30,806 nt of DNA from Pigoraptor vietnamica (lineage: Eukaryota; Opisthokonta; Filasterea). The position numbers were made by a program, and so were the translations under genes. A model generated the notes under the pieces. That model ran no database searches. It worked only from the letters and a program-made list of their open reading frames with translations, and was not told the origin of the DNA. Below are positions 9,816-30,692 of this stretch, one piece after another; within the stretch, counting starts at the first letter, position 1, and each line of letters begins with the position of its first letter. The stretch covers positions 1 through 30,806 of the forward strand of contig CALSCQ010002800.1 of the NCBI GenBank assembly GCA_943704525.1, given 5' to 3'.

Positions 9816-12800
9816 CTATCGCGCGGGTGCGGCGCCCTTCTCCACGTGCTTCTTTGCAGGTCCGAATTCGAGCCCCGAAATGCCCTTGCCGAAATTGAGC
9901 GTCGAAATGGTTTCGTCCGAGTTGATGGTGAGTGGGCTCACGTTCAGGAACATGCACGTCTTGGAGTCCCCTCCGAGCGAGTCCTTCACGTTAGGAAAAG
10001 AGGGATTGTTAGTATAGTTCACAAAGCCACCACATTGTACGCAGGCATATGGCACATGGGGGGTATGTCGGAGGCGCATTTTGGAACGACCACATTACAC
10101 ACAAGCACATGGTGCACCCGGACAAATACACACACAAACGAATGACTCATCGGCACATCAACAGCGTACAAACGCGCAGACATACACATGCGCGCAGACA
10201 ACTGCCACGTGCAAAGCCCCACCTGCAGCAAGTGCGTGAGCTTCGAATTCCGGTACGGAATGTGCAGCGCCTTGGACCGCAGCGACTGAAACACCTGTCC
10301 GAGCGCACTGAGCGACTTGTTGATAGCGGCGGCTTCCACGAGCCGCTGCCCCTGCGCCTCGCTGCGGGACACGCGCTCGCTACCGGCGAGGTCGACGAGC
10401 GTGAGCTTGCCGTGCAGCGTCTCCTTGCTCAGGCGATTCGTGCACGACACGGCGATCGTGAGGACGAGGTGGGACCGGCTGCTGCTGGAATTCATGCTGG
10501 TCGCAGCCACGGAGCGGTTCTTGTCGCCCGTGGCCATCACGCGCATGACGTCGTCGATCGACTTGACCTCGACCTCGGTGAGGCCGGGCACGTAGTTGCC
10601 GTTGGGACCGCGGCAGACCTCGTTCTTGCTGTTGCGCGCGGACGCGGGATCGCCGAGGAGGTCGATGATCTGTTCGTTGTAGATTTCGACGAGAGAGACG
10701 ATGATGCGGTGGTCGACCTGGTGGGTGGGTGGGGAAGGAGGAGGCAAGTGCTCACATGAGATGCTGTTTCCTGATACACACAGACACGCGCGCGCACGCA
10801 CGCACACGTTCGACGACATACCTCCGCGCGCGACTTGCAAATCTTGAAGAGTTCGGCGAGGGCGCGCACGTTGACACCGGGGTCGGCCTTCGTCCCCATC
10901 ATCGTGAATGTCTTGCCGGCGCCCGTCTGCGCACCCATACACAAAAGGCCGGTTGAGCGCCTTCGCCTCCATCAAGGGTCCGCGAACATAGGGCCTCAAA
11001 TATTGCCATATTACAACACACAAACGATAATGCGATAACTGTGAATGTAACACAGAACAACACACACACACACACACAGGCGCAGTCCCTTCGGTCTCGT
11101 AGCCTCGCACGCACCTGACCATAAGCGAGGATGCACACATTGTAGCCGTCCAAACACGACGTGATGATCGGCTCCGTGTCGTTGAACACCTCCGTCTGCG
11201 TGGACGTCGGCGCGTAAATTCGCTCAAACTCGAACCTGTTCGCGCGGCCCTGCGTGTTCGTGACGATGAGCTCGCTCTCCGACGGAATCTCGAGCGCGAG
11301 GGGCCCAGAGTCGTCGCGACGCACGCGGCAAAAGATGCGAATGTTGCCGCGCAGCTCCTGCAGCTTGTTGTAGAGGAGGCGTCGCTGGATGTTCTCCGCG
11401 CGGTACTTGGCGCGCAGCTCGGCCACGACATTGTCGATGTTGCCGTAGCGATCGCGCATCTGCCTGAGCGCGTCGTCGAAGCGGAGTAGAAGGGGCGCGA
11501 AGGCGGCAAACTCGGTCGCCGCTTGCTGCTTGAGAGACACGACAGTCTTTTGCAGGCCCTGCTCGGCAAGGACGGATGGCGTCAGCGCCGACGTATGCTG
11601 CATCCACACGTCGCTAGCACATGCACACGGAGAGTCAAGCGACCGCCCTCACTCACGTGCACCCGAATGTCGATCAACTAAAAGCATGACCACAACGGCC
11701 AACACGGTCACTTTCGCGCAGCGAATAACAAGAGCTACGAGGCACACTCCACAGAGACATCAAACGCACCCTTACTCTAACATTAACCCAACGCACACCC
11801 GCGCACCCCACCTTGACCTCCTTCGCGGCCTTCCCAAGCTTCTTGAGCGCCTCTCCGCTCTTCTTATTCTTCTTGTTCGCCTTCTTCAGCTTGAGCTGCG
11901 CCTGCGACAGCTGCGCGCGCACGCTCTCGAGCTCCGCCGTCGCCTCCGACGCGCCCGTCGCCACCGCCGCGTGCCGCGAGCTCTCGTCCTTCAGCCGCTG
12001 GTTCTCGTGCTCCAGTTCTAAGATACGGTCCTCGCTCAGCCGGAGCTGCGTCTCGAGATCCCGCAGCGACTTCATCGTCTCGTTGAGCTGCTTGCTCGCC
12101 TTCGTGTCGTCCCCTGCCCCGCCGCCGTCCTTCGCCACGGCCTTCTTCTTGTAGTCCATGAGTTGCACTTGGAGTTCGAGCAGCTCGTGCGTCTTTGCCT
12201 CGAGCGCCTTCTCCGCCTCCTGAAGCTTGAGCTTGCACGACGCGAGCACCTCAAAGTCCGTGTGGTGTGCGGGCATGGGACTCTTGGCATTGGCCTTCTT
12301 CGAGTGGTTGTTCTCGGAGTACTTCCAGTTGATCGTGTCCTGCACGTCGTAGTCGTTCTCGCGAAGCGCGCGGATCATCTCTTCCTCGTCCTTCCATTGG
12401 GGAATCACCGTCCGAATTTGCTTCAACATCTTCTGGACCTCGGGGACCTGCGCGAGCAAGCGTGCGTGCGTGTGCATGTGTGTGGGGTGGGGTGTGCGTG
12501 TGTGTGTTTGGGGGGGAGGGGACAAGGATGATGGTTGGAATGAGTGCGGGTGGTGTACTACACACCCTCAACATAAGCGTGCAATACCGCGTGTATCGAC
12601 ACATGCACATGAACACGCACACACCCTCACACGCACATGCCCTCACACCTTGTACGCAGGACAACCACGCACACAGGACACATGCGTCTGCGCGTGCATA
12701 GCATGCATTTCACGCACCTCCCGCTCAAGCTCGACCGGCATGCGCAGCCATGACGCCGAGTCGTCGTCGAAAAAGTAGCGCACGTTCTTGTGCACCTCAA

Positions 12801-20390: not shown

Positions 20391-20925
20391 ATGGTGCGCG
20401 TGGCGCCTGCTCCCGACGACGCACCGGCGTCCCCAAACGCGAAGGCTGCGGGTGCCGAATTGCTCTCGCAGACTGCGCGAGATGGGGCGAAGCGAACGTT
20501 GCCGCCGTTAGCGTCGGAAGCGAATGGAAACGGCTCGCCCCTCCGCCGCAGGTCTCGCGTTGAGGAAGACGGACGCGCGGAGAAGGACGTTGAACGAGGA
20601 GACGGCGGGGATGCGTCGCCCAAGGGGAGCGTCAGTAGGAATGGGAGTGGATCCGAGTCATCTGTTGGGGGGGACGTCAGCAAGGAAGGCGGTGAGGGCG
20701 AGGCTGTGGACTATAAGCACAATGCGATTGCGGTGGGAAAGGGCCAAGGGAGCGGCGAGTTGTCGGGGGCGCCAAAGGGTGCGTTGGATGGAATGTGTTT
20801 AGCGCGCAGTCTGAGGACTCGGCTGTGCTTCTGTGTGGTGGATGAGTGTGCGCTCGGGACATGCAGATATGCATGCTGCCCTTCTTTTCAGGCTTGTGTG
20901 TGTCTGTGATTAGAGAGAGAGAGAC

Positions 20926-20969
<44 letters not shown>

Positions 20970-23900
20970 TGTGTGTGTGTGTGTGTGTGCGTGTGCATGT
21001 GCGTGTGCATGTGCGTGTCTGTATCTCCGCGCGTGTGAGTGTCTGTATCTCCGTGTGCGTTTGAGTGTGAGTATGTGTTGTGTGTGCGTGCTTGTGCGTG
21101 CGCGTTGCTGTTGTCAGGAGTCCTGCGCGTGTGCTCAATGATATCATGCGTTGTCTCACACCAATCGCTGCGCTTCAGACATCTTCATCTCGTACTGTCG
21201 CGTGGACCAAGACATTGTGCGGCGCATCTACGACAGGCTGCGCGAGCATTTTCGCAACCCGTGGGTCGATTGGGTGGACATTCCCCTCGTCTCGGACTGG
21301 CTCGATACCATCCACAAAGGTGCGCCAGATACATGCGCGTGCGTGTACATGCATGTGCATGCATTCATGTCGAGAGCGGGCAAGTTTTGCTGTTGCTGGT
21401 TCGCACTGTGCGTGTCTCACTTACTCGCGAAACCGTTTCCCTCTCTCTGTCGACCAAAATTGTCACCGCATTCTTCTCTCCTCATTTCTCCGACTCTCTC
21501 AGAGTGCAGTCGACTGCCAATTTTTGCTATAGAGGATGATCCCAATCCCTCTCCTCCCTTCCTTCGCCCCTGCGCGCAGGCATCGAGGGTGCCGACGTCT
21601 TCATGTTCATGCTCAGTCCGGACAGCGTCAAGTCGGAAGTGTGCCGCAAGGAGATCGACCACGCCGTGTCCCTCGGCAAGAAGCTCGTCCCCGTCGTTAT
21701 TCGCGACGTCGACCCCAAGACCGTCCCAGAGTCCCTCGCGGCGATCAACTGGCTGTTCATGCGCGAAGAAAAGGAGCCGCTGGTCGCCACTTTCCCGCGG
21801 TTGCTACACGCCATCGACGTTGACCTCGAGCATGTGCGGGTGGGTCAAGCAGTGTGCCTTGAGTACGTGGGACTGTTGAGTGGCGAAAATTGCGACTGCT
21901 TGCCATTGGTGTTCTTACGGCATTGCCTTCTAAATTTAACGGTGTTCGACTCGTGCGCACGCAGGAGCACACGCGGCTGACCGTGCGCGCTCTCGAGTGG
22001 GACGCAGCCAAGCGCGACAAATCGCTCGTGCTCTACGGGAACGAGCTCGGACGCGCGCAAATGTGGCTGGAGGTCGCCGAAACGAAACCACCGCACCCGA
22101 CGCCGCTGATCAGGGAGTTTCTCAAGGCGGGACAGAGGTTGCGGCGACGGAAAACGCTCCTCCGCTTCATGCTCGCGATTGCCATTGTCGCCGGGTGCAT
22201 CGGCTTTGCGATCGGCTCGCTCATGCAGAGCAAGGAGGCGCAGGACCTCAGGCGCCAGGCTGAAAAGGACAAGTACAACGCCCTCCTGCTTAGCGCGTGG
22301 GCGCAGCACGAGTCGGGCGTGTCGTCTGCGCGTCAGTACGTGAGCGCCTCCCAACAGCAATTGGCGTCGGGCCGCTCTGGGATAGGCTACTTTCACCTCG
22401 TGCAAGGGCTGACGGCCGCCATCGCGTCTGGCGAATGGGAAGTTATGGCGGAGATTGCCACGCTGGCGGAGAACCTTCTCGCGTTTGCGCTCGATTACCC
22501 GACGACGTACGTGTGGAAGTCGCTGAACGGGATGCGCTCGTACTCGCGGAGTGTGGATTTTGACGTGGGGGGACCCTACGTCCTTTCTGGCGGATTCGGT
22601 GGGACTTGGTTAGCTGTGCAATGATGTCGCTGTCGGTGTTTCTTGACGTTTGCGTGCTTGTGTGCGTGATGTGTGTGCGTCGTGTGTGTAAAAGGACGCG
22701 CGTCTCCGTATGCGAGAATGCGCATGTACGTATGCTTACGTATTTAAGTACGCTCGTGTGGCATTTGAGTATGTGGCGTGTTGCATTTGAGTATGTGCTG
22801 TGATATTTTCGTATGCGTGTGTGCCATCCAAGTAATGTGCATGTGTGCGTGTGGTATTTAAGCATGTATGTGTCTCGCACCAAAGCACCGCACATCGAAG
22901 ACTGACAGCAAGCGCCCCTCACTGCAGACGACCATCTCGGTCTGTGGAACTTTCAGACGGACGACTTTGCGCCCATTTCGCTTCGCAGCGCCATCAACAA
23001 CGCGCACATGTTCTCCTTCGTTGTCATTTTCGTCACGAACGCGCACACGTGGGGAATGGTCTTCGCGCAGATCAGCAGGACAAAAGCCCTCTCTGCGTCC
23101 TACCACGGACCCGTGTGGTACGGCTTCGACACGTCCAAGGCGTTCACAACGGGCGCGACGCCGCTCGTGAAGCTGTGCGACTCGTCGGACCATTCGGCGG
23201 CGTACGTGCAGGTGTCGCGCGCCACGCACGCCCTTGCGCTCATCGGGTGTCCGGATGGCGACTTTCGTCTGTACAATATGTCGAACCTCGCCGTCTCTCG
23301 CACCTCTGCGATCGTCCCCGTGCCGGTTCCCCAAGACATGCACGCGACCTCGACGCTTCTCAACACGGACGTAGTGGCCGCTTTCGCGGAGGCGGTCAAC
23401 CCCAGCTCCACCGCGGATGCTGCCGAGGGCCACTGCGTTGCATTTTCCGTCGCGCAGTTTACACACACGAGCGCCAAAGCGGGACTTCTTTACGCCCCCG
23501 CCCTCGTTTTGCGGTCGGACAGGCCGACCGAACCCATTCGCCTTGCGCGCACGTCCGCGACGCCCCTCTCGGCCGTTTCCGCCATCTCGTTCGTGCACAA
23601 CGGTTTCGCGTCGATGCCTGGCGTCTTGCTTCTTGTCGGGTACGTGGACTCGACCATCGATGTGTTCAACGTCACCGCCCTATGTGCGCCCGCGCGGTTC
23701 CACAAGGTCGACTACGAGTTGTTCCGCTTGCCAGGTGTCGCAAACCTGACGCTCGTTTCTTTCGGAACGGCAAACTTTACGGACGTGTCCACGCAAGTCC
23801 CCAACATCCCCTCGTCCACCGCTGGGTCGATCGTGAAGATGTGCGCGCCCGACGGCACGGATTTCATCTACGTGGGAGCGACGCACTTCTCCGGTTATGC

Positions 23901-26418
23901 GATGGTCTCGCTCTCTCCTGGGCGTGTGCTGAACCTCACGCTGCCGGCTGTCGCCTTCTTCTCTGGGTCTCATGTGGTCGTGTCGCACAACTGCCTCTGT
24001 TCCGTCTCGGAGGATTTGCAGAAGCAGGAGTTTACGGTGTTGGACCCGCAGCGCCTCCGGACGGTCCGGTTGCGCTTCCCAACACCCCCCATCGCCACCT
24101 CGGCCTTTTTGTTGGTGGGCGGAGGGCGAACGATTGTTGCGGTGACCGGCGATGTCACGAGCGTATGGAACCTCGATGACGACTCTCGTGCGACCAGCGG
24201 AAATAACGCCATGGACTTTCGGTGCGTGTGTGTGCCGCTGTATCTGCGTGTGCGTGTGTGATGTGCGGACACGCGCGGTGTGCGTGCGTGTCGTCGACTG
24301 CATGTGCGTATGATGTGCGGACATGTCCCTGTCTCTGTTTTAAGCTGTGTCGGTGTTGGTGCGCATGTTGAGAACGGAAACTCTCGATGGTGCACGTACT
24401 TATCTAACTTCCTTTCCCTTCTGCGACAGCCTCTCGTCCTTCTTCACAACCGACCACGACTACGTTGTCAGCGACGCCGATTCGACCCGCTCGGGCACCG
24501 TGGTCGCACTCGCCGGCAATTTCAACGAAGTGCGCCTGATGCACGTCGTGCCGTCGTCGCAGTTTCCCTATCCGTTTGCGCTCGTGACGCCAAACAACGG
24601 GTCCGACCACACCCTCCGCTACGGCGTGAACGACGTGGACTCGACCCCCTCCGTCGGCATCGTCATTGCGGCCGGGGACAACGGCACCGTCTTCACGTGG
24701 CCATCGATCGTCGACGTCATCAATGGCATCATCGACGACCCGCGCGCTTTCGTCGCCTACAACGACTCGAGCGCGGGCGATTTCTTTGCCGTGAACTTTG
24801 CGGACCACTACCGCACGGCGTTTGTGGCAGGTCGCAGAAAGTCGGTGTCGTTCGACGTCCCCTCGTGCTGGACATGCGCCGGCGCTGAGACTCTGGGAGG
24901 GGCGCCGCGTGAGCTCGTGTATGCGACGTACGGCCTTCCCTCCGCGTGGATAGCGGCCACCACGGGCAACCTTCCTGTTTCCGCCGTGTTCTCGCACCTC
25001 CCCACGACTGGCGGGCTTGCTTGGACGCACACGCACGTCAACTCCACGGCGGTGCGCCTGACCGTCGCGAATATCAACGCGTCGCACTGCCCCCTGTCTT
25101 CCGACGACGGCGACGATCCGGGCCTCGGCACCGCCGCAGGCATTGCGGTGAGTCCGGACGGTCGCTACATTGCGGTGACGACTTCGACGTACACGTCGTT
25201 TGTGTTTGCAAACACAGCGCTGGTGGACACGGGCTCGTCGGTGCCTCCGAGTGCCGCCATGGCGCTCGTCGAGCCTGCCTGTCGGCCGCTGCTGTCGAGT
25301 ATTGTGACGTGCCCCTTCTACGCGGACGCTGGCCTGCGCATGTGCAAGATCGCGGCCGTGGCCTTCTCACCGGACTCGACCCTCCTTGCTGTCGGCAACC
25401 CCGATGGCACGGTGGGCGTCTGGGCGCTGTACGCAAACGCCAGGTTCGATGGTGGCGTGCAGCCCTTTGCGTTCGCCGCCGTATTGCCAGCGTCACAGTC
25501 GCTCGTGACATCGCTGATGTTCTCGAACGCGGGAGACTTGCTTGCGGTGGGGGAGGAGACTGGCGCCGTGCGCGTGTTTTCCGGAATGCGACGCGTCCGC
25601 GCGGGCGGGTTTATCGACGGGACGAGCTCGTGGCCATTCTCCGTGCGCCACTTTGAGTCGCAGACGCGACGCGTGTTCCAGCTGCATTTCAACGCGGACG
25701 ATAGGTGTGTGTGAATGTGTGTGTGTGGCATTGGTGTGAGGAAGACAGACTTGGGGGAGCTGCGGAGTGGAGCAAAAAAATGCATTATTGTTGGTCGGGT
25801 GCCTCGTTCCTATATTGCGGTTGTCCTCGCCAGACTGTCGCTCACTCGCCGTGCGTCTGCCGCCCTGCAGCCTTCTCTTTTCTGCGGCGGACGACAACGA
25901 CGTGTGCGCGTACAACATGACGACCACGTGCGGGACGGGCGCGGCTGTCGTCGTGACGTCGCTGAGCTCCATGACCAAAGGGTGCGTCGCTTTGGTTGAT
26001 TTGACTGCTGCAAACAAGTGTGTCAGCACCGTTTCGCATTCCCACAAACGCACATATCGACAATCGACATCTCTGTACCTCTCCCTCGTCCTCCGCCCCC
26101 TCTCCTTTGGGTATGAGAGTTTTTCCGCTTCCTCTTCTCACGCGGATCTTATGCGTCACTCCGTACCTCCTCACAAGCGACTCCTGAACCCCACCCTCCG
26201 CGTGCAGTGTGGCGGACGGCGGCCTTGCGTCTCTCACGATATCGTCGGATGGAAAGTACCTCTTTGCCGGCGTCAGCGAAGGCGGCGTCAAGCTCTTTAC
26301 GACGGACCTCCGCATCCTCTCGGACCTCGCGACACTCAAGTCGCTCGACCCCTTTGGCTTGCCGTTCATTGGAAAGAATACCGATCTGCGCTGCGTCTCT
26401 CGCCCCGCGACAGTCTGA
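20391..26418 (+). CDS. TIR-transmembrane-WD40 protein, type II topology
   Basis: Eight exons (20391-20778, 21179-21319, 21580-21839, 21965-22598, 22928-24221, 24430-25704, 25871-25981, 26208-26418) give 1437 aa. Residues 1-129 are charged and disordered. The TIR domain (130 to about 262) opens with DIFISYCRVD, has WVDWVDIP in the BB-loop region, and carries SPDSVKSEVCRKEID, placing Glu201 where NAD-cleaving TIR domains have the catalytic glutamate. A juxtamembrane stretch (HTRLTVRALEWD, LVLYGNELGRA, PHPTPLIREFL) matches what I know of bacterial TIR-WD40 proteins. One membrane span lies at about 330-350 after a basic RLRRRK. The remaining 1080 residues are WD40-like repeats, for example AFSPDSTLLAVGNPDGTV and ISSDGKYLFAGVSEGGV, with eleven N-glycosylation sequons. 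Cytosolic TIR and lumenal or extracellular propeller are inferred. The ATG has A at -3 and G at +4. NAD hydrolysis and the ligand are unproven. Confidence 0.9.
20911..20990. repeat. GA and GT compound microsatellite
   Basis: A (GA)n run is followed directly by (GT)n in intron 1 of the TIR gene. A pyrimidine tract with CAG just upstream (to 20891) mimics a splice acceptor. Confidence 0.9.
22731..22870 (+). repeat. Minisatellite of about 22 nt in a TIR intron
   Basis: Units built on ATTTRAGTATGTG recur at about 22732, 22753 and 22775, then decay into longer variants up to GTATTTAAGCATG at 22854-22866. The array fills much of intron 4 (22599-22927), close to its acceptor. Confidence 0.6.
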
Positions 26419-28988: not shown

Positions 28989-30692
28989 ATGGCATCTCGT
29001 TGTCTCGTCGCTGCGCTCGCAGTCGCGCTGCTTGCGGTGGCGTGCCATGGTGCATCCCCGCTTCCCAGGGACATTTACAGCGTAGTGCCCGCGGATTCCG
29101 CCAAGGGCATCACCGACGCTTTCCTCGCCGACGACTCGTATGCGTCGTATGTGGAATTCCGGTCGCAGTCGTTCAAGGTCGTCCCCGGTCGAGCCCCCAA
29201 CGCGCTCGCGACGGGGTGGTACGATGACGCCGTCAACGTGACGGGATGGGGCGAGTTTAGCGGGCGGTCGAATCCCTCTCTCTCTGCGCTGAAGCAGGGG
29301 TTCGCCGTCGGCTTTCTCGAGGGCGCGCTGACGCACGTGCGGATTGCGCAGGCGTTTGACAACTTTGTGGTGGCCACGGGCTTGCCCCCGTCCGGCGCGC
29401 TTCCGGCCAAGGTCGCTTCTTATGTGCAGCAGCAGAACGCGTACATGTGGGATGCCGTCAACAGCACGCTCTCGTCGCTCGTCGCCCGTCCCATTGACGC
29501 CGAATCGCCGGACGACCGCGCGTTTTGGGTGCAGGTGGGCGTGGCCATGGCGCAGGCCTACGGTGTTTACCGCGGGTACGTATCGGTGTCGAGCGAGAAT
29601 GCGCTGACGGAGGAGGACATTTACTCGTTGACGCTCGCCGGCGACCTCGAGGATCTCCTTCCCGCGTACTCTGGCATCTCGCTCAAGGTGCCCCAGCGCG
29701 TGACGGAGCGCATGGACTGCTCCGGGCTCGTCAAGCTGGACCCTGCGACAGGCAAGCTCTTCGTCGGCCACTCGACGTTCAACATTTACCCGTACCTCCT
29801 CCGGATCTTCAAGCACTATTCCATGGACCTCAGGCGATACGGCGCGGCTGCGACGACGCTGTCCCTCTCGGCGCGTCCTGGTGTGTTCATTGCATGCAAC
29901 TTGCCCCCGCTCGACCTTTTAACCCCTCTCACCTCTCGTGCTTACATCTTAGGGCCCGTCGGGGCGTCTCAGTCTTGTTGGCTGCCCTCGAACTTAACAC
30001 CTGGTTTTTTGTTTTATCCTGTCTGACCCCCCCCCCAAACACACACCACCATCTTTTCTATTGCAGCCGATCTCAACAGCAAGGACGACTTTTACCTGCT
30101 CGACAGCGGCCTCGTCGTCCTCGAGACGTCCCTCTCCGTCTTCAACAAGTCGCTCTACGGGCTGTTGACGCCGCAGTCTGTGCCGTCATGGGTCCGGTGG
30201 GTGGGATCACGTCAATTACCTCCTCAAACGCCGCACTTTTGGGATGCGTTGCAAATTCATTTTTTCCCTTCTTTGTTGCTGGCGAAGTGTGTCGTTCCCC
30301 GTTCTTCCCTTTCTCGTCGTCGACGTGTTCGCTGTCGCGTGGGGTCTCCCATCATGCCACGCGGCACACACACTGAAACCCAACTGTGACAATACGCGCG
30401 CAGTTGCCAGGTCGCCAACAGGCTCGCGCGCGGGGGCGAGGCATGGTCTCGCTGGTTCACGATGGAGAACAGCGGCACGCACAACAACCAGTGGGTCGTC
30501 ACAGACCTCAAGCTCTCCCCGTCGCGCCGCATGGGTCGCTTCAACCCGTCGGTGCCTCTCGCGCCGGGTGTCGTTTGGATTGCGGAGCAGATGCCGGGGA
30601 CGGTCGTTGCGCGTGACGTCACGAGCGAACTCCTCGCTGCGCAGCTTTACGTCCCCTCGTACAACATCCCGTACTTTCCGGAGATATTCAAC
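28989..30692 (+). CDS. PLBD: Phospholipase B-like (PLBD/LAMA) hydrolase, cut at window end
   Basis: Three exons are visible (28989-29880, 30067-30196, 30404-30692), coding 437 residues; a donor (gtgagt) follows at 30693 and the rest lies beyond the window. PLBD proteins are usually about 550-590 aa, so roughly the last quarter is missing. A clean signal peptide (MASRCLVAALAVALLAVACHG) directs it to the secretory pathway, and family members are lysosomal glycoproteins. PLBD enzymes are N-terminal-nucleophile hydrolases that cut themselves before a cysteine; Cys244 in RMDCSGL fits that residue. GHSTFNIYPYLLRIFKHY, ENSGTHNNQW, WIAEQMPG and YVPSYNIPYFPEIFN are further family signatures. NVTG, NSTL and NKSL are glycosylation sequons. 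The ATG has A at -3 and G at +4. The family call is strong; lipase activity in this family is debated. Confidence 0.93.
30027..30036. repeat. Poly-C run before a splice acceptor
   Basis: Ten C bases lie in intron 1 of the phospholipase B-like gene, about 30 nt before its acceptor. They may act as the pyrimidine tract. Confidence 0.8.

What the first reader, a model, noticed from the sequence alone, without database searches (positions are those of the whole stretch)
20391..26418. An upside-down Toll-like design: cytosolic TIR, one membrane span, glycosylated WD40 propeller outside
The sequence shows an N-terminal TIR domain, a basic patch followed by one hydrophobic span (about residues 330-350), then about 1080 residues of WD40-like repeats. 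Eleven N-glycosylation sequons follow the span, including NMS, NVT, NLT, NFT, NGT, NST, NAS and NMT. The basic patch before the span and the sequons after it both point to TIR inside and propeller outside or in the lumen. Toll-like receptors have the opposite polarity and use leucine-rich repeats. A eukaryotic receptor of this type would couple an outer propeller sensor to a TIR output.
Basis: partly seen in the sequence, partly recalled or inferred. Interest (0 to 1): 0.85.

Follow-up and report, generated by a model that had tools for sequence, protein, structure and literature searches.

The report
Bacterial-type membrane TIR-propeller protein in protist
A single-celled eukaryote carries an intron-bearing gene for a membrane protein with an immune-type TIR domain, a membrane span and a repeat-rich tail, a layout that is ordinary in bacteria and was probably acquired from them with its sensor part still attached.

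Summary
The gene is real. Eight GT-AG exons (20391-26418, +) close one frame of 1437 aa: charged leader, TIR (131-241, E 1e-23), linker, one hydrophobic span (328-351), then a long tail with WD40 signal. Kinesin and phospholipase B genes share the contig, so it is eukaryotic.

The 'upside-down Toll' reading is partly right. The layout is not new: TIR, characteristic linker, one span about 200 residues after the TIR start, then WD40 is a large bacterial family. All 80 loci kept match the linker; 61 of 67 tails scanned have WD40. TIR inside, tail outside is supported mainly by relatives with CHASE2 or an M23 peptidase beyond the span.

Glycosylation is not shown: 11 sequons against 7.4 expected by shuffling, P 0.10. 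WD40 is detectable only at 1212-1401 and faintly at 446-486.

Best reading: a bacterial TIR-TM-WD40 receptor gene acquired by a protist, now with introns and host-like codon use, keeping the putative catalytic glutamate (E201). Eukaryotic relatives could not be searched; donor, host name, ligand and NADase activity are untested.

The parts
20391..20778 (+). exon 1, residues 1-129: charged, low-complexity leader, no signal-like hydrophobic stretch; the least certain exon
   Evidence: model; GC3 0.69, lowest of the eight; 0 of 80 bacterial relatives match; max hydropathy -0.01
21179..21319 (+). exon 2, residues 130-176: first half of TIR (DIFISYC...)
   Evidence: (PF13676, E 1.3e-7)
21580..21839 (+). 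exon 3, residues 177-263: second half of TIR with putative catalytic Glu201 (CRKEID) and start of linker
   Evidence: (E 2.2e-9), (aligned to SARM1 KEI)
21965..22598 (+). exon 4, residues 264-474: linker (HTRLTVRALEW...), basic patch, span, post-span region, start of a WD-like blade
   Evidence: (linker 80 of 80)
22157..22228 (+). single hydrophobic span, residues 328-351
22928..24221 (+). exon 5, residues 475-905: beta-rich tail part, WD40 not detectable by profile; 5 sequons
24430..25704 (+). exon 6, residues 906-1330: contains the clear WD40 blades (from about 1212); 5 sequons
25871..25981 (+). exon 7, residues 1331-1367; 1 sequon
26208..26418 (+). exon 8, residues 1368-1437 and stop
   Evidence: propeller matches reach about 1401

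Best explanation
A protist gene that belongs to the bacterial TIR-linker-single span-WD40 family and keeps the whole receptor layout. Shown here: the domain order, the homologous linker, the span at the family's position, retention of the glutamate aligned with SARM1's KEI, introns and host-like codon use. Inferred: type II membrane topology with TIR in the cytosol and the propeller region outside or in an endomembrane lumen; ligand binding by the tail clusters the protein; clustering of the TIR domains switches on NAD+ cleavage or production of an ADP-ribose signal, as in other enzymatic TIRs. Origin by horizontal transfer from bacteria is inferred from the breadth of the bacterial family against a single copy in this genome; the tree does not show direction or donor.
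For: Gene model closes in frame with GT-AG at 7 of 7 introns. TIR E 1e-23. tblastn to Tolypothrix TIR-TM-WD40 at 38.8% over 233 aa, E 2e-47 (its Pfam content). Linker 245-322 matches 80 of 80, shuffled linker 0 in five tries. 71 of 80 have a span at +190 to +240 from the TIR start; the window has it at +198. 61 of 67 tails have WD40. CHASE2 or M23 beyond the span in L015, L016, L036, L089. E201 aligned with SARM1 KEI (that this Glu is catalytic in SARM1 is recalled). Best solved-structure matches: Cat1, a CRISPR-associated TIR, E 9.3e-6 for the TIR, and PkwA WD40, E 1.3e-12 for the tail. Host-like codon use, RSCU r 0.93 against 493 codons of neighbouring genes. Eukaryotic neighbours. One copy of residues 130-905 and of exon 6 in the genome at E 0.001, apart from two weak TIR matches.
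Against: No eukaryotic proteome collection was searchable, and genome contigs holds only bacteria and archaea, so 'all bacterial' is partly by construction and descent through other eukaryotes is not excluded. The 80 loci were ranked by tblastn over a query that includes the linker, so the 80 of 80 is homology within a selected set, not an unbiased rate. Both trees are unrooted with every other row bacterial, so they cannot show the direction of transfer; the window's branch is long (1.1) and its placement has no starred support. The tail is poorly recognisable: exon 5 0 of 80, post-span 352-440 0 of 80, exon 6 36 of 80 by what may be generic WD40 similarity. Sequons and charge bias in this protein alone do not settle topology. 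No activity, ligand or expression data.
Confidence: 0.7

Rival explanations
1. Membrane-tethered cytosolic scaffold: the span anchors the protein but the tail stays in the cytosol (hairpin, or no true insertion), so the WD40 part is an intracellular protein-binding platform.
For: Most eukaryotic WD40 propellers are intracellular (general knowledge); sequon excess not significant (P 0.10) and K/R 7 versus 5 around the span; span hydropathy reached by 179 of 2000 shuffles.
Against: Span position conserved in the family (71 of 80); relatives carry extracytoplasmic domains beyond it; no second span of similar hydropathy (max 1.61 after 352); sequon density twice the bacterial pool.
Confidence: 0.18
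2. Independent eukaryotic invention: a TIR, a span and a WD40 propeller were joined in this lineage, giving an inverted Toll-like receptor by convergence.
For: No other copy in the genome; the tail is diverged and exon 5 matches none of the 80 bacterial relatives.
Against: The TIR-to-span linker, for which Pfam lists no domain here, matches 80 of 80 kept bacterial relatives, at about 60 bits for one linker copy in the two best rows printed (whole-sequence scores up to 118 bits where three copies add up), and the spacing to the span is the same.
Confidence: 0.05
3. Old eukaryotic gene (not exclusive of the best explanation): the bacterial-type receptor was acquired early or spread between protists, so this is one of a wider, unsampled eukaryotic family.
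For: Long branch (1.1), introns, host-like codon use; an atlas reports eukaryotic TIRs scattered among bacterial ones (PMC13142454, section 5 read).
Against: No evidence either way from eukaryotes, which could not be searched here.
Confidence: 0.4
4. Assembly or contamination artefact: a bacterial gene in a eukaryotic assembly.
For: The architecture is bacterial.
Against: Seven in-frame spliceable introns, codon use like the neighbours, kinesin and phospholipase B on the same contig.
Confidence: 0.01

Closest known systems
Bacterial TIR-linker-TM-WD40 proteins (e.g. WP_264267989.1, Tolypothrix sp. PCC 7712 plasmid; annotated only as TIR domain-containing protein)
   Same: TIR, linker, single span about 200 residues after TIR start, WD40 tail
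   Different: No introns, no long charged leader; WD40 repeats regular in Tolypothrix and diverged here
Toll-like receptors
   Same: Single-span protein joining a TIR to a possible outside sensor
   Different: TIR is N-terminal, no LRR found, and the linker is bacterial; no relationship beyond the TIR fold is claimed
SARM1, Cat1 and other TIR NADases
   Same: TIR alignable (Cat1 E 9.3e-6; isolated SARM1 TIR E 0.002-0.003), glutamate of SARM1 KEI kept as E201
   Different: No SAM, ARM or CARF match in Pfam; membrane-spanning; activity untested
Dictyostelium TirBCD (PMC13142454; outline with abstract, passages and section 5 read)
   Same: Bacterial TIR reported as acquired by a protist; introns reported for tirB and tirD
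   Different: There the locus is reported to lack known regulatory domains; here linker, span and sensor-like tail are present. No sequence comparison was made
nSTAND1-TM-WD40 proteins (Streptomyces NBC_00053, WP_266501523.1)
   Same: A related linker-span-WD40 part (one search hit H5, E 8e-6, residues 113-356 of the query)
   Different: NTPase in place of the TIR; no NTPase found here

Membership tests
Bacterial TIR-linker-TM-WD40 family | N-terminal TIR_2 domain | tested here: met
   E 1e-23, residues 131-241
Bacterial TIR-linker-TM-WD40 family | Linker (HTRL..RALEW...LxG..L..A..WL...P.PT) | tested here: met
   alignment, 80 of 80 kept loci, five shuffles 0
Bacterial TIR-linker-TM-WD40 family | One span about 200 residues after the TIR start | tested here: met
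   +198; 71 of 80 relatives at +190 to +240
Bacterial TIR-linker-TM-WD40 family | WD40 tail | tested here: met
   WD40 E 5e-13; 95.9%, E 5.7e-9 for exon 6; but exon 5 not recognised
Bacterial TIR-linker-TM-WD40 family | TIR inside, tail outside | tested here: inconclusive
   Inferred from relatives with CHASE2 or M23; no topology program or assay available
Toll-like receptor | LRR ectodomain followed by span and C-terminal TIR | tested here: not met
   no LRR; TIR is N-terminal
NLR / STAND receptor | NACHT, NB-ARC or nSTAND NTPase | tested here: not met
   none at E up to 0.1
TIR NADase | Catalytic glutamate at the SARM1 KEI position | tested here: met
   alignment, E201; role of this Glu recalled
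TIR NADase | NAD+ cleavage | not testable with these tools
   needs an enzyme assay
N-glycosylated surface receptor | Occupied N-glycans on the ectodomain | tested here: inconclusive
   11 sequons, shuffle mean 7.4, P 0.10

The most novel reading that the evidence does not exclude
A complete bacterial sensor-effector receptor (TIR, linker, span and propeller) was transferred to a protist and works there as a surface or vacuolar receptor, whose outward WD40 tail detects microbes or non-self and whose cytosolic TIR consumes NAD+; the tail has since diverged and gained glycan sites.
Probability: 0.3. Interest if true: 0.75.

Novelty: new member of a known kind. Interest (0 to 1): 0.5.

Why it matters
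How eukaryotes take over bacterial immune effectors without being killed by them is an open question. The Dictyostelium case in PMC13142454 is reported to have kept the TIR but no known regulatory domain. If this gene is a transfer that kept its own membrane sensor, it gives a testable contrast: does a self-contained receptor make an NAD+-cutting TIR easier to domesticate? It also draws attention to a large bacterial membrane TIR family that I did not see described in the listings and passages of the papers searched.

Tried and rejected
Rfam on the window: nothing at the gathering threshold. tRNAs: none.

Viral or phage carrier: viral contigs gave 8 pattern matches, none a relative; phages, linker-span-blade query, no match at E 0.001.

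Known defence system: PADLOC on three bacterial relatives gives only partial TIR, repeat and chance-like matches; NCBIfam on the window protein gives three matches, all far below cut-off.

Donor phylum: unresolved. The quick tree of 82 rows puts the window among Chloroflexota and Actinomycetota rows (87, no star), the careful tree of 68 rows with two Poribacteria rows (93/58, no star).

Structure: only exon 5 was modelled (mean pLDDT 56, pTM 0.48); exon 6 was never accepted and no fold search was possible, so 'propeller' for exon 5 is not shown. Papers PMC5587647, PMC3501461, PMC10907252, PMC7159879, PMC7075850 and PMC4083563 (passages only) do not describe this architecture in the passages shown.

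Full report
OBSERVATION. The stretch 20391-26418 is not one reading frame. Read by frames and joined at GT-AG sites, it gives eight exons: 20391-20778, 21179-21319, 21580-21839, 21965-22598, 22928-24221, 24430-25704, 25871-25981, 26208-26418. GC3 is 0.75-0.86 in exons 2-8 (intron GC 0.50-0.56); exon 1 is less certain at 0.69. The window is a whole contig (C1166 of a 32.5 Mb, 1395-contig genome). Of 20 open frames scanned with Pfam, six had a match at E up to 0.01: two over cut-off on a kinesin (motor and microtubule-binding part, 10022-11609, -), one over cut-off on phospholipase B (28989-30023, +), and three below cut-off (START, EF-hand, Rab11-FIP3-like). The gene is therefore in a eukaryotic contig and is not a contaminant.

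DOMAINS. TIR_2 at 131-241 (E 1e-23); WD40 and related propeller models at 1212-1401, with a faint match (E 0.03) at 446-486; no LRR, no NTPase. The only strong hydrophobic stretch is 328-351; its best Kyte-Doolittle value of 2.39 is reached by 179 of 2000 shuffles of the whole protein, so hydropathy alone proves little. No other copy of residues 130-905 or of exon 6 was found in the genome at E 0.001, apart from two weak TIR matches. The genome has four other TIR places, on contigs C518, C350, C938 and C58.

SEQUONS AND TOPOLOGY. There are 11 sequons after the span and 2 before it. Shuffling the 1086-residue tail gives a mean of 7.4 and P 0.10. Sixty-five bacterial tails of at least 300 aa (of 80; the other 15 were short or lacked a clear span) have a pooled density of 4.9 per 1000 against 10.1 here, and 3 of 65 reach that density although bacterial proteins of this kind are not expected to carry such glycans (general knowledge). 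K/R within 15 residues are 7 before and 5 after. In the bacterial family the bias is clear: more before than after in 61 of 72, equal in 10, reverse in 1. The better argument is by relatives with the same TIR-linker-span part: Kovacikia L015 and genome loci L036 and L089 carry CHASE2, and Agrobacterium L016 carries WD40 followed by an M23 peptidase (E 4.5e-21); L087 has an M23 match below cut-off and L040 a bacterial SH3 domain. CHASE2 is described as an extracellular sensor in PMC5587647 (passage) and PMC3501461 (passage). M23 acts on cell wall (general knowledge). So in this family the tail is probably outside and the TIR inside, and the window protein most simply inherits that. The leader has no hydrophobic stretch that could act as a signal peptide.

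RELATIVES. A tblastn search of plasmids found five records, best Tolypothrix sp. PCC 7712 at 38.8% over 233 residues through the span (E 2e-47), with WD40 over most of the tail. The scan's two patterns came from the TIR, but the ranking used the whole query, linker included, so the linker result is homology in a selected set: residues 245-322 match 80 of 80, five shuffles match none. The span lies at +190 to +240 from the TIR start in 71 of 80; here +198. Of 67 tails scanned (13 of 80 left out because the tail was short or the span not found in range), 61 have WD40; the six others have CHASE2 (2), TPR (3) and SH3 (1). Matching by part: leader 0, post-span 352-440 0, exon 5 0, exon 6 36 of 80.

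TREE AND ORIGIN. With 82 rows (quick) and 68 rows (careful; 13 near copies and the Tolypothrix plasmid row left out), the window is a long branch without starred support; the two trees place it differently. All other rows are bacterial and the root is not inferred, so the trees cannot show direction or donor. Transfer from bacteria is inferred from the breadth of the bacterial family and the single copy here. Codon use matches 493 codons of neighbouring genes (RSCU r 0.93; GC3 0.80 versus 0.84-0.90), which fits a transfer that is not recent. Eukaryotic databases were not available, so an older eukaryotic history remains open.

MECHANISM. Among solved structures the TIR is nearest to Cat1, a CRISPR-associated TIR (E 9.3e-6), and aligns with SARM1 (E 0.002-0.003 for the isolated TIR); its CRKEID glutamate, E201, falls on SARM1's KEI; that this is the catalytic residue is recalled. 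The tail's best solved match is the WD40 part of the kinase PkwA (E 1.3e-12). I infer that the tail binds something outside or in a vacuole, clusters the protein, and so activates NAD+ cleavage. Steps shown: anatomy and homology. Steps inferred: topology, clustering, activity, ligand.

STRUCTURE. Exon 5 was modelled with 35 bacterial tails (of the 67 in A2) as alignment: mostly strands, mean pLDDT 56.2, pTM 0.48; this neither shows nor excludes a propeller. Exon 6 compares with the bacterial tails at 95.9% probability, E 5.7e-9, over 70 columns; exon 5 does not.

LITERATURE. Eight searches of the paper library gave no description of TIR-TM-WD40 in the listings or passages I saw; five phrases of the type TIR-WD40 or WD40-TIR give 0 papers. 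PMC13142454 (preprint 2026; outline with abstract, passages, section 5) reports transfer of a bacterial TIR to Dictyostelium and says the locus lacked known regulatory domains; its main text has no occurrence of WD40.

VERDICT. Real gene, bacterial architecture, probably acquired; polarity likely, glycosylation unproven; not a new inverted Toll design.

Noticed in passing
L001 (genome contig C518), minus strand: Another TIR gene of the same genome: a long open frame (1134 aa) with ankyrin-like repeats (by eye) before a TIR.
   Followed up: partly
L003 (genome contig C938), minus strand: TIR half followed in the same open frame by a cysteine-rich hydrophobic stretch that could be a second kind of membrane TIR protein (by eye).
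   Followed up: no
L002 (C350) and L005 (C58): Two further TIR genes that resemble each other at the TIR start (DVFISY.WA.KE.AR..K..L), by eye.
   Followed up: no
L016 3456-6389: Agrobacterium plasmid protein joining TIR, span, WD40 and an M23 murein peptidase in one chain; annotated only as a peptidase.
   Followed up: partly
L015 2187-5336 and L014 2190-4697: Three tandem TIR domains before a span, with CHASE2 after it in L015 (Kovacikia).
   Followed up: partly
window 20910-21110 and other introns: Introns hold GA and GT/GC simple repeats (by eye).
   Followed up: no
window 10022-11609 (-): Kinesin motor with a microtubule-binding part, spread over two open frames, probably because of introns.
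   Followed up: no
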